Shown here: piece by piece, positions 1 to 49,548 of the stretch
Numbering within the stretch: position 1 is the stretch's first letter
How the letters are laid out: every line of letters begins with the position of its first letter
Assembly: GCA_021156365.1 (NCBI GenBank)
Contig: JAJNDK010000008.1
Location: 248,001 to 312,000 of the forward strand
DNA length: 64,000 bases
Origin: Bacteroidota bacterium
Lineage (GTDB): Bacteria; Bacteroidota; Bacteroidia; B-17B0; Aurantibacillaceae
Direction of reading: 5' to 3'
The notes under the pieces: generated by a model
What the model saw: only the letters and a program-made list of their open reading frames with translations
Databases searched by the model: none
What the model was told of the DNA's origin: nothing
Program-made: the position numbers and the translations under genes

Positions 1-74
1 TATATACTTATAACGGGACCAATAGCTATATCAAGCGATGCAACTATATCTTGTTGTTTTTCTTTTGTTACCAT
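1..74 (-). CDS. 5' end of a second SNase-like small protein, cut by the window edge
   Basis: An ATG at 72-74 opens a minus-strand frame that stays open for 24 codons to the left edge. It reads MVTKEKQQDIV followed by ASLDIAIGPVISI. The latter part aligns with the start of the complete 82-aa protein at 241-489 (LDTAIGPIIRV), so I infer a tandem paralogue with a longer N-terminus. Staphylococcal-nuclease-like barrels begin with a strand of this kind (GPxIxVxDG), but the diagnostic part lies outside the window. Function unknown. Being partial, it rests only on this short match and on position: same strand, 166 bp downstream of the first copy. Confidence 0.45.
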   Translation of the reverse strand, partial: MVTKEKQQDIVASLDIAIGPVISI

Positions 75-240
75 AATTTAAAAGACAAGTTTAGTAGAAA
101 AGCTTCCTTTCTTGTATCAAAAACCATGCTCACAAGAGATCTATAAATAAATCCAGTAAAGTTGACAGTAATTATCTAATTTGCTATTGAAGATTGTGGA
201 ATTTTATGCTAAAAGGGCATTTTTTTTCTCAAATCGAAAA

Positions 241-489
241 TCATTCAAAAAACACATCACCATATAAACGATTATATGCATCTCTATAACGCACATGACA
301 CTTTACTCGTCTGCCTATTAATGCATAGGATAAAACTGTTTGGTTAGTAAGATTTGGGTTTGGAGCTATAAACACTATTTCAAGATTGTTATATCCATAC
401 TGATTATGCGCACCAACATGAGTTACCTGCATTTGGAATGAGTTCCCATCAATGACACGTATTATTGGCCCAATTGCTGTATCTAACAT
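241..489 (-). CDS. small SNase-like (OB-barrel) protein, catalytic residues apparently missing
   Basis: 82 aa, ATG start, no signal peptide. The pattern IIRVIDGNSFQMQV, then LEIVFIAPNPN, then ALIGRRVKCHV and RDAYNRLYGDV follows the order of a staphylococcal nuclease (thermonuclease, SNase) domain: VxxVxDGDT, RLxxIDxPE, A..L.GkxV, D.YGR.xaxV. Where active SNases have the calcium-binding Asp of DGDT this protein has Asn (DGNS), and the Arg/Asp/Glu of RLxxIDxPE are not evident, so I infer a binding barrel rather than a nuclease. It starts 4 nt after the stop of the RelA/SpoT-domain gene and is surely co-transcribed with it. A related start lies at 1-74. AT-rich, unlike the neighbouring core genes. 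An antitoxin or effector role would be speculation. Confidence 0.6.
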   Translation of the reverse strand: MLDTAIGPIIRVIDGNSFQMQVTHVGAHNQYGYNNLEIVFIAPNPNLTNQTVLSYALIGRRVKCHVRYRDAYNRLYGDVFFE

Positions 490-493
490 TATT

Positions 494-1357
494 TTACTTA
501 GTTTTTTTTCGATTAAGTCCTTTTTCGTATTCTTCCTGCCTTAATTCGGTCTGTCTATTGCGAATTATAGTGCCAATCTCATCTGCACTTCCTGCTATCC
601 TATTCAAAGCTAATAAATAACTATCCAAGGGATGTTTTGTTCCCTTTTTTAACACATACCTTAATTTATGGTCAATTTCACTCCAACCATCTTCAAAAAC
701 AGTTCTTACTTGAATTTCCGCAAATCCTATTTTCTTTTGAGGATATGGATCAATTATATAATGAATAGATCTATATGCCTTTGGATGTACCTTAGCATCG
801 CATCCATGCTTTTTACATTCATCAATAAACGTTTTTTCATCGCCCTTTCGATAATATGCGGTTGGACTTTCTTTTACTTTATATTGGCAATCATTAAGAA
901 TGAAATTATGAATTCCGAACCAATCATTTTTAAAAACATGAAGAATTCTAATTCCAATCAAATCGTTAATTTCATTGGTGTAATTTTTGGCCGTAATATT
1001 TTTTACTACTCCTTTTTTCTTTGCTTCAATCGTTTTACGAATGATCTTTTCTATTAAGCTATCAGATTTTTTAAGTCTTGATCGTACTGAGTGAATACCA
1101 ACTTCCTTTGCATCATTAGTTAAAAACTTACTTACTATATCTGTGACAATTCCTTGTAATAATCCTTGATTGGAAACATAATCATCATAAATTTTCTGTA
1201 GCTCGTTCCATTTTATTTTTGTTGCATCAAAGTCTTTTTGCGAAATACTATACTTTTTAAGAAAACTCTCTTTAGGCAATAGAGCATTTTTTTCAACTGA
1301 ATTTGCAGTGAAGGAAGCAGTATTATTTGTTCTATTTATTGAAGATTTTCTGTTCAA
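494..1357 (-). CDS. RelA/SpoT synthetase-domain protein (nucleotide pyrophosphokinase)
   Basis: About 287 aa with a single RelA/SpoT nucleotidyltransferase domain and no HD hydrolase, TGS or ACT domain. Visible motifs are KKSDSLIEKIIRK (substrate loop), NDLIGIRILHVF, YRSIHYII and AEIQVRTVFEDGWSEIDHKL, which carries the E-Q-RT...W signature of pyrophosphokinase domains. It would transfer pyrophosphate from ATP to a nucleotide (ppGpp-type alarmone), or to another acceptor as in toxic small alarmone synthetases. Start: the frame extends up to a TTG at 1417 that lies in the dnaK terminator; there is no ATG. I prefer TTG 1357 because an exact TATATTTG -7 box (1365-1372) would place transcription start there, and the recognisable family sequence begins after it (LPKESFLKKY). 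Followed 4 nt later by the SNase-like gene. AT-rich; likely acquired. Confidence 0.8.
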   Translation of the reverse strand: MNRKSSINRTNNTASFTANSVEKNALLPKESFLKKYSISQKDFDATKIKWNELQKIYDDYVSNQGLLQGIVTDIVSKFLTNDAKEVGIHSVRSRLKKSDSLIEKIIRKTIEAKKKGVVKNITAKNYTNEINDLIGIRILHVFKNDWFGIHNFILNDCQYKVKESPTAYYRKGDEKTFIDECKKHGCDAKVHPKAYRSIHYIIDPYPQKKIGFAEIQVRTVFEDGWSEIDHKLRYVLKKGTKHPLDSYLLALNRIAGSADEIGTIIRNRQTELRQEEYEKGLNRKKTK

Positions 1358-1364
1358 ACTATTC

Positions 1365-1372
1365 CAAATATA
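1365..1372 (-). promoter_or_regulatory. -7 box TATATTTG for the RelA/SpoT-domain gene
   Basis: Exact match on the minus strand to the Bacteroidota housekeeping -7 element TAnnTTTG, 7 nt before TTG 1357. No TTG at the usual -33 spacing. If used, the transcript would be essentially leaderless and independent of dnaK. Confidence 0.35.
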
Positions 1373-1415
1373 GTATATTTTCCTAACAATAACATAAGCT
1401 AAATAGAAGCAAAAC

Positions 1416-1447
1416 AAAGCCCCATCCGATATCCGGATAGGGCTTTT
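1416..1447 (-). terminator. rho-independent terminator of dnaK
   Basis: Inverted repeat AAAGCCC(C)ATCCG / CGGATAGGGCTTT with a 4-nt loop, 23 nt after the dnaK stop. Read on the minus strand it is followed by a T-rich stretch (TTTGTTTT). The upstream-most start codon of the RelA/SpoT frame falls inside it. Confidence 0.75.
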
Positions 1448-1469: not shown

Positions 1470-3389
1470 TTATTTCACTTCTTCGAAATCCACATCGGTT
1501 ACTTCGCTGTCTTTGCCTTTTTCATTTGAAGTACCATTTGTATTATTCGCCTGTGCATTCGGATCTGCATTGTTAGCACCTTGCTGGTTCATAGCATTGT
1601 ACATATCCTGTGATGCCGCTTCCCATGCTTTGTTCAGACCTTCCAGAGAAGAATCGATCTTTGCCAGATCTTTAGCCGCATGTGCTGTTTTCAGCTCTTC
1701 CAATGCTGCTTCGATCGCTGTTTTTTTCTCAGCCGGGATCTTGTCACCGTATTCTTTCAGCTGTTTCTCGCTTTGGAAAATGGTGGTATCCGCCTGGTTC
1801 ACTTTCTCGATCTCGTCTTTCGCTTTTTTATCCGCATCTGCATTTGCTTCTGCTTCGCGTTTCATTTTCTCGATATCTTCTTTCGACAGTCCGCTGCTTG
1901 CTTCGATACGGATGTTCTGCGTTTTCCCGGTTGCCTTGTCTTTTGCCGATACATGGATGATACCATTCGCATCGATATCAAAGGTCACTTCGATCTGCGG
2001 AACTCCACGTGGTGCAGGCATGATGCCATCCAGGTTGAACTGCCCAATCGTACGGTTATCTTTCGCCATGGAACGTTCTCCCTGCAGTACATGCAGCTGA
2101 ACGCTCGGTTGGTTATCGCTGGCAGTAGAGAAGGTCTCCGATTTTTTGGTCGGGATCGTAGTATTCGCTTCGATCAGCTTGGTGAACACTCCACCGTAGG
2201 TTTCGATACCCAATGAAAGCGGCGTAACATCCAACAGCAACACATCTTTTACTTCACCTGTCAATACACCACCCTGGATAGCTGCACCGATCGCAACCAC
2301 TTCATCCGGGTTCACACCTTTGGAAGGAGTTTTGCCGAAGAATTTCTCTACTGCAGCCTGGATAGCGGGGATACGTGTAGAACCACCCACAAGGATCACT
2401 TCATCGATCTCGCTTGCACTGTAGCCGGAGTTCTTAAGAGCTGATTTTGCCGGCTCTATCGTACGCTGGATCAATGAATCTGCCAACTGCTCAAATTTTG
2501 CACGTGTCAGGGATTTCACCAAATGTTTAGGGATCCCGTTCACCGGCATGATATACGGCAGGTTGATCTCGGAGCTGGTAGTGCTCGATAATTCTATTTT
2601 CGCTTTCTCTGCAGCTTCTTTCAAACGTTGCAATGCCATCGGATCCTGGCGAAGATCGATACCTTCGTCTTTTTTGAATTCGTCGGCCAGCCAGTCGATG
2701 ATCACGTTATCAAAGTCATCACCACCTAAGTGTGTATCACCATCGGTCGATTTTACTTCAAATACACCGTCACCCAGCTCAAGTACGGAAACGTCATGTG
2801 TACCACCACCGCAGTCAAACACAACAATTTTCATGTCTTTGCCTTTTTTATCGAGGCCATACGCCAATGCTGCTGCTGTAGGCTCGTTGATGATACGACG
2901 GACTTTCAGGCCTGCGATCTCACCCGCTTCCTTGGTAGCCTGACGCTGTGCATCATTAAAATAAGCAGGAACGGTAATAACCGCTTCCGTTACTTCTGTT
3001 CCCAGGTAGTCTTCAGCTGTTTTTTTCATTTTTTGAAGAATGATCGCTGAGATCTCCTGTGGAGTATATTTTCTGTCGTCGATTTCCACACGCGGTGTGT
3101 TGTTCTCGCCTTTCACTACCGTATATGGAACACGGGTGATCTCTTTCTGGCTTTCTTCGAATGAAGAACCCACGAAACGTTTGATCGAGTAAATGGTCTT
3201 TTTAGGATTGGTGATGGCCTGGCGTTTCGCAGGATCCCCGACTTTACGCTCGCCGCCTTCTACAAAGGCTACAACAGATGGAGTTGTACGCTTGCCTTCG
3301 TTGTTTGCGATCACAACCGGCTCATTTCCTTCCATTACGGCCACACATGAGTTGGTTGTACCTAAGTCTATACCTATTATTTTGCTCAT
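1470..3389 (-). CDS. dnaK: molecular chaperone DnaK (Hsp70)
   Basis: 639 aa, the usual length. ATP-dependent cytoplasmic folding chaperone working with DnaJ and GrpE, neither of which is in the window. It opens with [17 protein letters not shown], followed by the actin-fold ATPase to about residue 385, the interdomain linker [16 protein letters not shown], the substrate-binding beta domain, the helical lid and a flexible tail ending [11 protein letters not shown]. The phosphate-2 loop reads DCGGGTHD where the widespread form is DLGGGTFD, a substitution next to the catalytic Thr. A sigma-54-like core and a TGACA/TGTCA palindrome lie upstream and a strong terminator follows. Single-gene transcript. 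Confidence 0.98.
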
Positions 3390-46282: not shown

Positions 46283-47647
46283 ATGAAGGACAAAAAAACA
46301 GTAGCTGTGTGGATAGTAGAAGACAATGAGTGGTATAATAAGCTGCTCAAACATACTATTTCACTCAACCCCGAATACAGTGTACGTACTTTTTTCAATG
46401 CACACGACTTCCTGAAAGAGCTCGAAGCCAAACCGGATATAGTGACCATCGATTACAGGCTCCCCGACATGGACGGCATCGAGCTATTGGCAAAGATCAA
46501 AAGCTTTGATGAGAATATTAAGGTGATCGTGATCTCCGAGCAGGACAAGATAGATACTGCTATTGAACTGCTGCGACTCGGCGCTTACGATTACATTGTG
46601 AAAGAAAAAGATGTGCGCAACAGGCTTCTCAACACGATCAACAACGCGATAAAGGAACAAAACCTCGTGACCAGGATCATGGCCCTGGAGCAGGAAGTGA
46701 TCAATAAATATGATCTGAATAAAACCATCATCGGTGCGAGTCCTGCTATACAAACCTCGCTCAAACTGATCGAAAAAACATTAGAGAATAATATTACAGT
46801 GATCGTTACGGGGGAAACCGGAACGGGTAAGGAAGTGGTAGCGAAAGCTATTCATTACAACTCCTCCCGCAAGCATAAGAATTTTGTAGCAGTGAATGTG
46901 GCTGCTATCCCGGGCGAGCTGATAGAAGCGGAATTGTTCGGGCATGAGAAAGGCGCCTTCACAGGAGCCAATAACCGCCGGATCGGGAAGTTTGAAGAAG
47001 CCAATGGTGGCACGCTTTTTCTCGATGAGATAGGCGAACTCGATCATTCCCTGCAGGCAAAGCTATTGCGGGCCCTCCAGGAAAAAGAGATCGTACGCAT
47101 AGGAAGCAATGCCCCGATAAAATTCGACACCCGCATCATTGCGGCCACACACAGAAACCTGAAAGAAGAGGTGAAGAAAGGGAAATTCAGAGAAGATCTT
47201 TACTATCGCCTGATGGGATTCCCGATCGAGCTGCCACCGCTCCGTTCAAGAGGAAAGGATGTACTGATACTCGCCAAACATTTTATAGATGTGTTCTGCA
47301 AGGAAAACAAAGTCCCGTTGAAAACACTGAGTGAAGAAGCAAAAGCCAAATTACTGGGTTATCACTACCCGGGCAATATCCGTGAATTGCGCTCTACCAT
47401 AGAGCTCGCCATTGTGATCGGTGATAAGAATGAGATCATGGCCAACGACATTACTTTCCTTTCGGATGAACTGAACCCTGAGAATGTAAGTGACGATCTT
47501 ACCATGCGCGAATACGAACTAAAGATCGTGGAAACGTATCTGAAAAAATACAACAACGATATCAAGCTGATCGCCTCGAAGCTGGATATCGGGCAGGCTA
47601 CGATCTACAGGATGATCAAGGAAATGAAGGAGAAAGGAACCGCTTAA
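46283..47647 (+). CDS. NtrC-family sigma-54 dependent response regulator
   Basis: 454 aa. Receiver 1-120 with [26 protein letters not shown] (phospho-Asp) and VKEKD. AAA+ domain about 145-385 with [15 protein letters not shown] (Walker A), GAFTGA ([15 protein letters not shown], intact sigma-54 contact), [11 protein letters not shown] (Walker B) and ATHRNL. Fis-type helix-turn-helix about 410-450 ([30 protein letters not shown]). Oligomerises when phosphorylated and drives open-complex formation by sigma-54. Last gene of the relay; its TAA overlaps by 4 bp the stop of the convergent HNH gene (TTAA). Confidence 0.95.
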
Positions 47648-48312
47648 TCAAAGTATTTTTCAAATTCTGCTTTCAAGTCAGGATTTTCCATAATTATTTC
47701 TCTTTTAAAAGCAGTAAAATTTGAAGATCGGTTCAATTGTCCTTTTATTCTAATCAAAAAATATTTTTTATCTTTTTTAGTATAAGTGTCATTAAAATAA
47801 TCTAAGAGATTTTGTTGAAAACTCAGAATTTCCTCTAAAAGTTTATTCCGCAAGTTGGAAGATTCTATAGTTTTCAATTTCGTAGTTCCATTATAAATAT
47901 CCATGAGCAATGATTTTGTCATCAATGTCTCTGCAGAGGTGTCGAGCTCTTCAATTTTCACCTTTTCAAGAGGGAAAGGCTTAAAGCCATATTTTAATCT
48001 ATTTCCTATATTTTGTGTCTTATCGGTACAATTAAGAATATTCTTATAATTTGCCAATTTAGTATTATTACAATGGCTACAAGCCCAAAACAAATTATTC
48101 CAATCAAATTTCAAATCAATATTTCCCTCATGAGGAGTGAAATGCTCTACATTTATAGACGTAGGCTCTTTATATTCACATATATAGCATTTATTCTTAA
48201 AGTCATCTTTTATTCTATTTAAGACATTTAAGCATTTATAATCTCCACTTGTTTTAAGCTTTTCTTTTTCTAAACAATCCGGTGCCGGCTGTGATTTTTC
48301 GAAATAAACCAT
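47644..48312 (-). CDS. HNH endonuclease (PtuB-like, TIGR02646 type)
   Basis: 222 aa, AT-rich. The centre carries an HNH/zinc cluster: CYICEYKE (first Cys pair), INVEHFTPH (catalytic His region), WNNLFWACSHCNNTK (Asn and second Cys pair), a form I know from TIGR02646-type HNH proteins next to retrons or to ATPases. It follows the AAA ATPase by 6 nt on the same strand. In Septu (PtuA/PtuB) the nuclease is the effector that degrades DNA or tRNA-like targets after phage sensing. Homology to Septu is by gene architecture and motifs, so the effector's target is uncertain. Its stop overlaps that of the sigma-54 activator. Confidence 0.75.
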   Translation of the reverse strand: MVYFEKSQPAPDCLEKEKLKTSGDYKCLNVLNRIKDDFKNKCYICEYKEPTSINVEHFTPHEGNIDLKFDWNNLFWACSHCNNTKLANYKNILNCTDKTQNIGNRLKYGFKPFPLEKVKIEELDTSAETLMTKSLLMDIYNGTTKLKTIESSNLRNKLLEEILSFQQNLLDYFNDTYTKKDKKYFLIRIKGQLNRSSNFTAFKREIIMENPDLKAEFEKYFD

Positions 48313-48318
48313 TTGCCT

Positions 48319-49548
48319 TTATTTTTTGTTATTTAACTCTATTAATTCTATTTGCTGTAATTTAACCAATAATTCTTTGGATAAATATTTCGGAGTATGA
48401 GCAAAATAATCACGTAAATATCTTAATCGCGCTGAATTTGGTTCTGATAAATCATTAGTATTTATTAGCATTTCAAACTCTCCGATTAGTGCTTTTACTT
48501 CTTCAGAGTATTTATCTGTATTAAAATAACTTTCTAATAAAGCATCATAGGAGTATGCAGATAAATCTGTAATGACAGTCTTAGATTCCAAATCACAAAT
48601 GACAGTATTAGAAAGAGAGGAAAGTACAAATGGCGAATGAGTAGTTACAATAAATTGAATCCTTGGAAAAAAATCAGTCAGAAATGGTAAAATTTTTTTT
48701 TGTAAATCAACATGTAAATGCGTCTCAATTTCATCAATAATAACTATTCCTTCTAAATCATAAGATTTCACTTCGTGAGCTTCCATCCGTAACAACAACT
48801 CAGTTACAATACTAATTATAGCAGAATATCCATCAGACAAGTTATTAAAATTAAAAGGTTGCTTCCCTGGAGCTATGATATCGAAATTATATGTTTTTCT
48901 ATCAAAAAGAAGCATAAGATCTTCCACATCAAATATTTCCTTAAGCCTATCTTCAAATTTACTAAACCAACTATCAATTTTATCAACTACACCCTGCTCG
49001 TTGTCGTCCCTTGCAAACGATCTATCTGCTTTAAGGTTTACAATATATTGAATGAAACCAATACTTGCCCTTTCCTTATAACCATACTTTTTCTTCAAAT
49101 CAATTTTTTTTACGCCTGTTGGAATCGTTAAATTTGTATGCCTCTTAGAGTCAAAATAAGCCAAAATAAATTCTCCTTTTTGGCATTTGTCATAAATTCT
49201 ATCTTCTGACAAGGAAAATGATATCTTGGTACCTCCAAAATTTTTGAACCATTCTAAAATGCCTTTATACTGATTATTAGAGTTTTGCCTTATTGTTTCT
49301 GGAAGATTGGTATTTGATATTTGATCTTCTAAATGCATTAAATTCCTTTTTTGGCTCTCATAATGCACAAAACTACCACCATCAATTTGAGTTAAATACT
49401 TATTTATTTCAATTAATAAACTGGTCTTTCCACTTCCGTTTTTTCCCGTTAGAATCAAATGCTTTCTTTTATCCTCCGAAAAAGGTATTTCCAAGTCTTT
49501 AACATTTCGAGACTCTTTAACCGTTATACTTGTTATAAAATTTTCCAT
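48319..49548 (-). CDS. AAA ATPase (PtuA-like, SMC/ABC-type)
   Basis: 409 aa. Walker A in LTGKNGSGKTSLLIEINKY (about 34-50); a long coiled or helical insertion; an ABC-signature-like NLSDGYSAII; Walker B with catalytic Glu in IVIIDEIETHLHVDLQKKILP; and the H-loop THSPFVLSSL. This is the layout of an AAA_15/21 SMC-like ATPase as in PtuA of Septu and in retron or OLD-type defence. In Septu it forms a complex that controls the HNH nuclease. Start ATG 49548. AT-rich and on the opposite strand to flanking core genes, so probably a horizontally gained cassette. Confidence 0.75.
   Translation of the reverse strand: MENFITSITVKESRNVKDLEIPFSEDKRKHLILTGKNGSGKTSLLIEINKYLTQIDGGSFVHYESQKRNLMHLEDQISNTNLPETIRQNSNNQYKGILEWFKNFGGTKISFSLSEDRIYDKCQKGEFILAYFDSKRHTNLTIPTGVKKIDLKKKYGYKERASIGFIQYIVNLKADRSFARDDNEQGVVDKIDSWFSKFEDRLKEIFDVEDLMLLFDRKTYNFDIIAPGKQPFNFNNLSDGYSAIISIVTELLLRMEAHEVKSYDLEGIVIIDEIETHLHVDLQKKILPFLTDFFPRIQFIVTTHSPFVLSSLSNTVICDLESKTVITDLSAYSYDALLESYFNTDKYSEEVKALIGEFEMLINTNDLSEPNSARLRYLRDYFAHTPKYLSKELLVKLQQIELIELNNKK

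What the first reader, a model, noticed from the sequence alone, without database searches (positions are those of the whole stretch)
1..1417. AT-rich patch: RelA/SpoT synthetase plus SNase-like small protein
Seen: a single-domain RelA/SpoT nucleotidyltransferase directly followed (4 nt) by an 82-aa SNase-like protein with degraded catalytic positions, inserted behind dnaK, with raised AT content. Known: single-domain RelA/SpoT synthetases occur as toxins (toxSAS) paired with small antitoxins and in phage defence. Inferred: this may be a toxin/antitoxin or defence pair with an SNase-like barrel as partner, a pairing I do not know from the literature.
Basis: partly seen in the sequence, partly recalled or inferred. 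Interest (0 to 1): 0.7.

Follow-up and report, generated by a model that had tools for sequence, protein, structure and literature searches.

The report
Alarmone synthetase with dead-nuclease-like partner
Four unrelated places in Bacteroidota carry the same small movable pair of genes, an intact stress-nucleotide synthetase followed at once by a tiny protein shaped like a nuclease that has lost its cutting residues, so the tiny protein probably controls the synthetase, although whether the pair is a toxin-antitoxin or phage-defence unit remains to be tested.

Summary
An AT-rich island (31% GC; flanks 44-46%) behind dnaK carries, on the minus strand, an intact single-domain RelA/SpoT synthetase (about 1357-494) and, 4 nt later, an 82-aa OB-barrel protein (489-241). 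The pairing is real: three other Bacteroidota loci with unrelated surroundings carry the same two genes 1-4 nt apart; the four synthetases form one clade (support 98), and none of the about 127 other family members fetched has the small gene. The partner has lost SNase residues D21, R35, D40 and E43 in all four loci yet evolves under purifying selection: a conserved non-enzyme, not a decaying nuclease. Nine of ten catalytic positions examined in the synthetase are conserved. It is nearer RelP/RelQ and the Fusobacterium SAS than known toxSAS toxins; the F. nucleatum SAS makes (p)ppApp in vitro (literature). Best reading: a mobile synthetase plus protein regulator, most likely a toxin-antitoxin or abortive-infection unit with an OB-barrel inhibitor/sensor. 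Toxicity, product and binding are untested. New variant of a known kind.

The parts
494..1357 (-). RelA/SpoT-type single-domain synthetase, about 287 aa (TTG start at 1357 preferred; longest ORF to 1417)
   Evidence: PF04607 E 1.3e-18; AF2 pLDDT 88.7, closest RelQ/RelP folds; catalytic positions R93, K95, K103, R106, D131, R136, Y194, E213, H229 conserved in 134-135 of 135 relatives
241..489 (-). 82-aa OB-barrel (SNase-like, catalytic residues lost) partner protein, copy 1, 4 nt after the synthetase
   Evidence: conserved immediately downstream in L028, L029, L030; AF2 pLDDT 86.2, five-strand barrel; VIA Z 6.8 to SNase 1syc, tied with other OB folds; pN 0.24 against pS 0.63
1..74 (-). N-terminal codons of a second copy of the partner (99 aa, 43% identical), which continues outside the window to G000:C10:247775
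1416..1446 (-). intrinsic terminator of dnaK, upstream border of the module
   Evidence: 14-pair stem plus T-rich tail (L003 15447-15417); a second terminator (L003 13659-13638) closes the module beyond the window
1470..3389 (-). dnaK, the upstream neighbour; not part of the module
   Evidence: genes downstream of dnaK differ in the relatives examined

Best explanation
A horizontally acquired, self-standing two-gene module. Gene 1 is a catalytically intact small alarmone synthetase of the Fusobacterium/fpRel-like family, which moves pyrophosphate from ATP to the 3' position of a nucleotide acceptor (giving (p)ppGpp or (p)ppApp). Gene 2 is a dead mini-SNase OB barrel that binds the synthetase and keeps it in check, taking the place of the variable C-terminal tail that mobile relatives carry in the same chain; a trigger such as phage infection would relieve the block and arrest growth. 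Shown: conserved tight pairing, monophyly, intact synthetase site, loss of nuclease residues with purifying selection, patchy distribution, absence of the long tail in paired forms. Inferred: physical binding, inhibition rather than activation, the trigger, and the defence role.
For: Pairing in four loci with unrelated flanks. Paired synthetases are one clade (98) and the small gene is absent from the other family members fetched. Paired forms have 52-54 aa after the HxxRY motif; the other 94 loci measured have a median of 167; only the solo Fusobacteria clade is similarly short. Catalytic residues intact; dead barrel under purifying selection. Absent from the 86 other genomes of the order. 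Family relatives in 45 viral contigs, on plasmids, and in phage family phrog_2211, E 3.9e-48. The L028 copy lies beside AbiEi/AbiEii; the window's genome carries a Septu PtuAB pair 46 kb away. Recombinant F. nucleatum FN0926 SAS was used to make ppApp and pppApp (PMC10434055); F. vincentii holds just one long Rel and one SAS, so its L008 gene is probably the ortholog.
Against: No toxicity, product or binding data. Nearest solved folds are the non-toxic RelQ/RelP. Solo, apparently vertical relatives exist in Fusobacteria and Clostridia, so the catalytic family as a whole is not obligately toxic. Gene order is synthetase first. Only four paired loci are known. The window has two partner copies, which a simple one-to-one inhibitor does not need. 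The orthology of L008 and FN0926 is inferred, and in vitro (p)ppApp synthesis does not show which product is made in cells.
Confidence: 0.5

Rival explanations
1. The barrel is an activator or substrate-presenting subunit: like other OB folds it binds RNA, ssDNA or a nucleotide (for example a phage nucleic acid or a tRNA end) and switches the synthetase on, so the pair is a sensor-effector rather than toxin-antitoxin.
For: The OB fold ties structurally with PriB, SSB, ribosomal S17 and IF1-type nucleic-acid binders; RelQ is known to bind single-stranded RNA (reference cited in PMC11782079); the paired barrels keep conserved basic positions R69 and R74.
Against: A tight toxin-first pair with a tail-less enzyme also fits a cognate inhibitor; no nucleic-acid-binding motif could be shown; DALI-scale Z of about 7 is unspecific.
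Confidence: 0.22
2. An ordinary accessory (p)ppGpp synthetase of the RelP/RelQ kind, moved around by horizontal transfer, whose small partner tunes its activity in stress; no toxin or defence role.
For: Nearest folds RelQ/RelP Z 16-17.6; solo relatives in Fusobacteria and Clostridia appear vertical; RelP ATP-site residues conserved (PMC5794853).
Against: Absent from the rest of the order; relatives are rich in phages, plasmids and variable tails; the host already has a long Rel.
Confidence: 0.2
3. Remnants: a decaying nuclease gene that happens to lie behind a mobile synthetase.
For: Four of five SNase catalytic residues are missing; AT-rich insert.
Against: The same loss in four loci, purifying selection, conserved 1-4 nt gap, and a duplicated open copy.
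Confidence: 0.03

Closest known systems
toxSAS toxin-antitoxin pairs (FaRel2/ATfaRel2, PhRel, CapRel, FaRel; Tas1/Tis1 effector-immunity)
   Same: Single RelA/SpoT synthetase domain, intact ATP and Mg sites, small protein encoded next to it, mobile and patchy distribution.
   Different: Nearer to RelP/RelQ than to CapRel, Tas1 or FaRel2; the partner is an OB barrel, not the YXXY pseudo-zinc-finger, Tis1 or Panacea type of known antitoxins (PMC11782079, PMC8832971); toxicity unknown.
fpRel / Fusobacterium SAS (FN0926 type)
   Same: 40-43% identity to Fusobacterium and Ilyobacter homologs, same extra segment ExP..YxRxGD (approximate), same short C-terminus.
   Different: Fusobacterial genes are solo and look vertical; the window's has a partner gene and is horizontally acquired. 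The fpRel name rests on Atkinson 2011 listing fpRel as the Fusobacteria SAS (PMC3153485).
RelP and RelQ (small alarmone synthetases of Firmicutes)
   Same: Best fold match, same catalytic residues.
   Different: N-terminal helical extension, insert before the G-loop, Ser84 position variable, partner gene.
SNase (thermonuclease) OB domain, PF00565
   Same: OB barrel; a profile of the small proteins reaches a true SNase at E 6.4e-4 (target confirmed PF00565 E 7.8e-22); R87 equivalent kept in the four paired proteins.
   Different: Barrel only (about 82 aa), D21, R35, D40 and E43 lost, no Pfam match.
Tde-SAS (DsRel, SAS-TPR)
   Same: A SAS held down by an added protein domain (PMC10434055).
   Different: The brake there is a fused TPR domain; here it would be a separate OB barrel.

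Membership tests
toxSAS toxin-antitoxin | single RelA/SpoT SYNTH domain with intact catalytic residues | tested here: met
toxSAS toxin-antitoxin | conserved adjacent small gene | tested here: met
   4 of 4 clade members, gaps 1-4 nt
toxSAS toxin-antitoxin | synthetase nearest to the known toxSAS subfamilies | tested here: not met
   phmmer reaches RelP/RelQ at 3e-8 and no CapRel or FaRel2 at E up to 1; Z 17.6 RelQ, 11.6 CapRel, 9.5 Tas1, 7.3 FaRel2. The known members do not exhaust the family
toxSAS toxin-antitoxin | growth arrest by the toxin, neutralised by the partner | not testable with these tools
   needs expression assays
toxSAS toxin-antitoxin | partner of a known antitoxin type (YXXY pZFD, Tis1, Panacea, SAH hydrolase) | tested here: inconclusive
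   fold is an OB barrel, no Pfam match; toxin families are known to swap antitoxins
fpRel small alarmone synthetases | sequence grouping with the Fusobacteria SAS | tested here: inconclusive
   same family as the Fusobacteria clade, apart from the RelQ outgroup, but no fpRel model or reference set was at hand; the name comes from PMC3153485 Table 2
fpRel small alarmone synthetases | reaction product ((p)ppGpp or (p)ppApp) | not testable with these tools
   FN0926 makes (p)ppApp in vitro (PMC10434055)
SNase (PF00565) | Pfam match over cut-off | tested here: not met
   no SNase match at E up to 1 for the four partners and copy 2
SNase (PF00565) | catalytic D21, R35, D40, E43, R87 | tested here: not met
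   only the R87 equivalent remains in the four paired proteins, only the R35 equivalent in copy 2; orphan relatives in G234 keep the set
SNase (PF00565) | OB-barrel fold | tested here: met
   (Z 6.8, tied with other OB folds)
known anti-phage systems (PADLOC-DB 2.0.0) | match of either protein | tested here: not met
   no match at E up to 1; some family relatives weakly match candidate PDC-S33

The most novel reading that the evidence does not exclude
SNase-derived OB barrels are a new class of antitoxin or phage sensor for alarmone synthetases, and the fpRel-like family is a large phage-linked effector family in which a variable fused tail or, in this clade, a separate OB barrel is the sensor.
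Probability: 0.35. Interest if true: 0.78.

Novelty: new variant of a known kind. Interest (0 to 1): 0.58.

Why it matters
If the barrel is an inhibitor or sensor, it adds a new fold to the few known ways of holding a RelA/SpoT synthetase in check. It would also link a widespread, little-studied synthetase family, found in 45 viral contigs, in plasmids and in many phyla, often with hypervariable tails, to phage-bacterium conflict. It gives a compact two-protein system in which substrate, trigger and control can be tested directly.

Tried and rejected
Decayed nuclease: rejected by conservation in four loci and pN below pS; synonymous sites are near saturation, so no dN/dS value could be given. 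Pairing on phages or plasmids: the small protein was not found there with several queries; absence at that sensitivity only. Fused synthetase-barrel: none found among the loci. RNA antitoxin: no Rfam match in the module. Empty-site comparison: the region behind dnaK is not syntenic in the relatives examined, so the borders of the insertion could not be set. Known toxSAS reference from phage SJ46: record not held under the accession tried. Main paper on toxSAS classification not held. Only the best 80 of 278 genome relatives were kept, so further paired loci may exist. The small proteins in G497, G234 and G412 are orphans with no synthetase in the stretches read.

Full report
What is there. The window is G000:C10:248001-312000 of a 5.3-Mb genome. 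On the minus strand, behind dnaK and its terminator, lie a single-domain RelA/SpoT synthetase (PF04607 E 1.3e-18) and, 4 nt after its stop, an 82-aa ORF. Fetching the contig beyond the window edge showed a second small ORF, 99 aa and 43% identical to the first, starting at window position 74. The whole module, bounded by two intrinsic terminators, is 31% GC against 44-46% in the flanks. The longest synthetase ORF starts inside dnaK's terminator; the TTG at 1357 matches the N-terminal length of the other paired genes better.

Distribution. Neither gene has a match at the thresholds used in the 86 other genomes of the order, apart from one 30%-identity synthetase of another subfamily. Across a phylum sample, small-protein relatives appear in 3-4 of 395 genomes, own genome included. 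A scan of one genome per species with seven synthetases found 278 relatives, of which the best 80 were kept; 45 loci came from viral contigs, others from plasmids and a Vibrio phage. The phage family phrog_2211 matches at E 3.9e-48.

The pairing. A profile search over all ORFs of these loci found the small gene in exactly three of them, the three nearest relatives: L028 (72-75% identity), L029 and L030 (45-51%), 1-4 nt behind the synthetase and on the same strand. The flanks are unrelated; L028 has AbiEi/AbiEii next door. On a tree of 137 synthetases the window, L028, L029 and L030 form one clade with support 98 (FastTree, so deeper branches are not relied on). All four have a short C-terminus (52-54 aa after the HxxRY motif). 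The other loci measured have a median of 167, with coiled-coil and often repetitive, hypervariable tails; the solo Fusobacteria genes are short too. Each of the four host genomes has one long Rel plus this one SAS.

The small protein. AlphaFold2 gives a confident five-strand barrel (pLDDT 86.2). PDB matches are SNase/SND1 and other OB folds with tied Z near 7, so fold alone does not prove SNase descent. The sequence link is that a profile of the small proteins reaches a true SNase at E 6.4e-4, and that orphan relatives in G234 still carry VIDGDT, IRI, IDLSE and GR, the SNase catalytic pattern. In the four paired proteins the D21, R35, D40 and E43 equivalents are gone and the R87 equivalent is kept; copy 2 has lost D21, D40, E43 and R87 and keeps only the R35 equivalent (read from the alignment). 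pN of 0.16-0.31 against pS of 0.63-0.68 for copy 1 and its orthologs shows purifying selection, with synonymous sites near saturation. It is a maintained non-enzyme.

The synthetase. AlphaFold2 pLDDT is 88.7. Positions that in S. aureus RelP bind ATP and Mg (R78, K80, K88, R91, D107, R112, E174, H190) and the G-loop Tyr151 (PMC5794853) are conserved in 134-135 of 135 family sequences; Ser84 is not. Fold ranking: RelQ Z 17.6, RelP 16.8, CapRel 11.6, Tas1 9.5, FaRel2 7.3. The family has an insert with conserved E162, R169, G171 and D172 that RelQ lacks. Atkinson et al. list fpRel as the Fusobacteria SAS (PMC3153485). The Treponema paper reports that recombinant F. nucleatum FN0926 was used to make ppApp and pppApp (PMC10434055); a close Fusobacterium has only one SAS, so the family's closest characterised member can probably make adenosine alarmones. 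That hints at, but does not show, toxicity.

How it most likely works. Intact enzyme, dead co-encoded barrel, no long tail, horizontal spread: the simplest model is a synthetase kept in check by a separate protein, comparable in logic to toxSAS pairs, where antitoxins block the ATP or acceptor site (PMC11782079). Inhibition, binding and trigger are inference. An activating or nucleic-acid-sensing barrel is the main rival, since OB folds often bind nucleic acids; a tuned ordinary SAS is the next.

Comparison and novelty. It works like a toxSAS pair in layout but is not filed as one: the synthetase is nearer RelP/RelQ and the Fusobacterium SAS, the partner is of another fold, and toxicity is untested. 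Searches for papers joining toxSAS with an OB-fold partner, or small alarmone synthetases with a nuclease homolog, found none, in a library that lacks most subscription papers. Verdict: confirmed observation, partly supported interpretation, new variant of a known kind.

Noticed in passing
window 47644-49548 (-): A second AT-rich patch (29% GC) holds a Septu-type defence pair: PtuA (PDLC00268 E 2.4e-121) and PtuB (PDLC00331 E 2e-59).
   Followed up: partly
L022:3050-5383 (+) and L025:4303-6636 (-): A conserved three-gene operon in two distant Bacteroidota-like genomes: a protein of about 193 aa without a Pfam match, a ParA-like ATPase, and a divergent RelA/SpoT synthetase.
   Followed up: partly
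L043, L057, L080, L111, L138, L050 (synthetase C-termini): Phage and proteobacterial family members carry long, repetitive, hypervariable C-terminal tails (for example repeats of SASALASLDKTSLLG or RYQNQVPSSIASMMS), which look like variable sensor regions.
   Followed up: no
L168 and L027 (G234:C91:40421-50992): An array of orphan mini-SNases with catalytic residues kept, repeated together with DUF3892-like (named from memory) and deacetylase-like genes.
   Followed up: partly
L020:4997-6013 and L021:4749-5831: One genome (G158) has a synthetase gene broken by two stops on one contig and an intact relative on another.
   Followed up: no
L012:2299-3796: In a Vibrio phage record the synthetase lies in two overlapping frames; either a frameshift error or a programmed shift.
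   Followed up: no
G000:C10:132245-132613: A short HD_4 open frame (194 aa), a possible small alarmone hydrolase, lies about 116 kb from the module.
   Followed up: no
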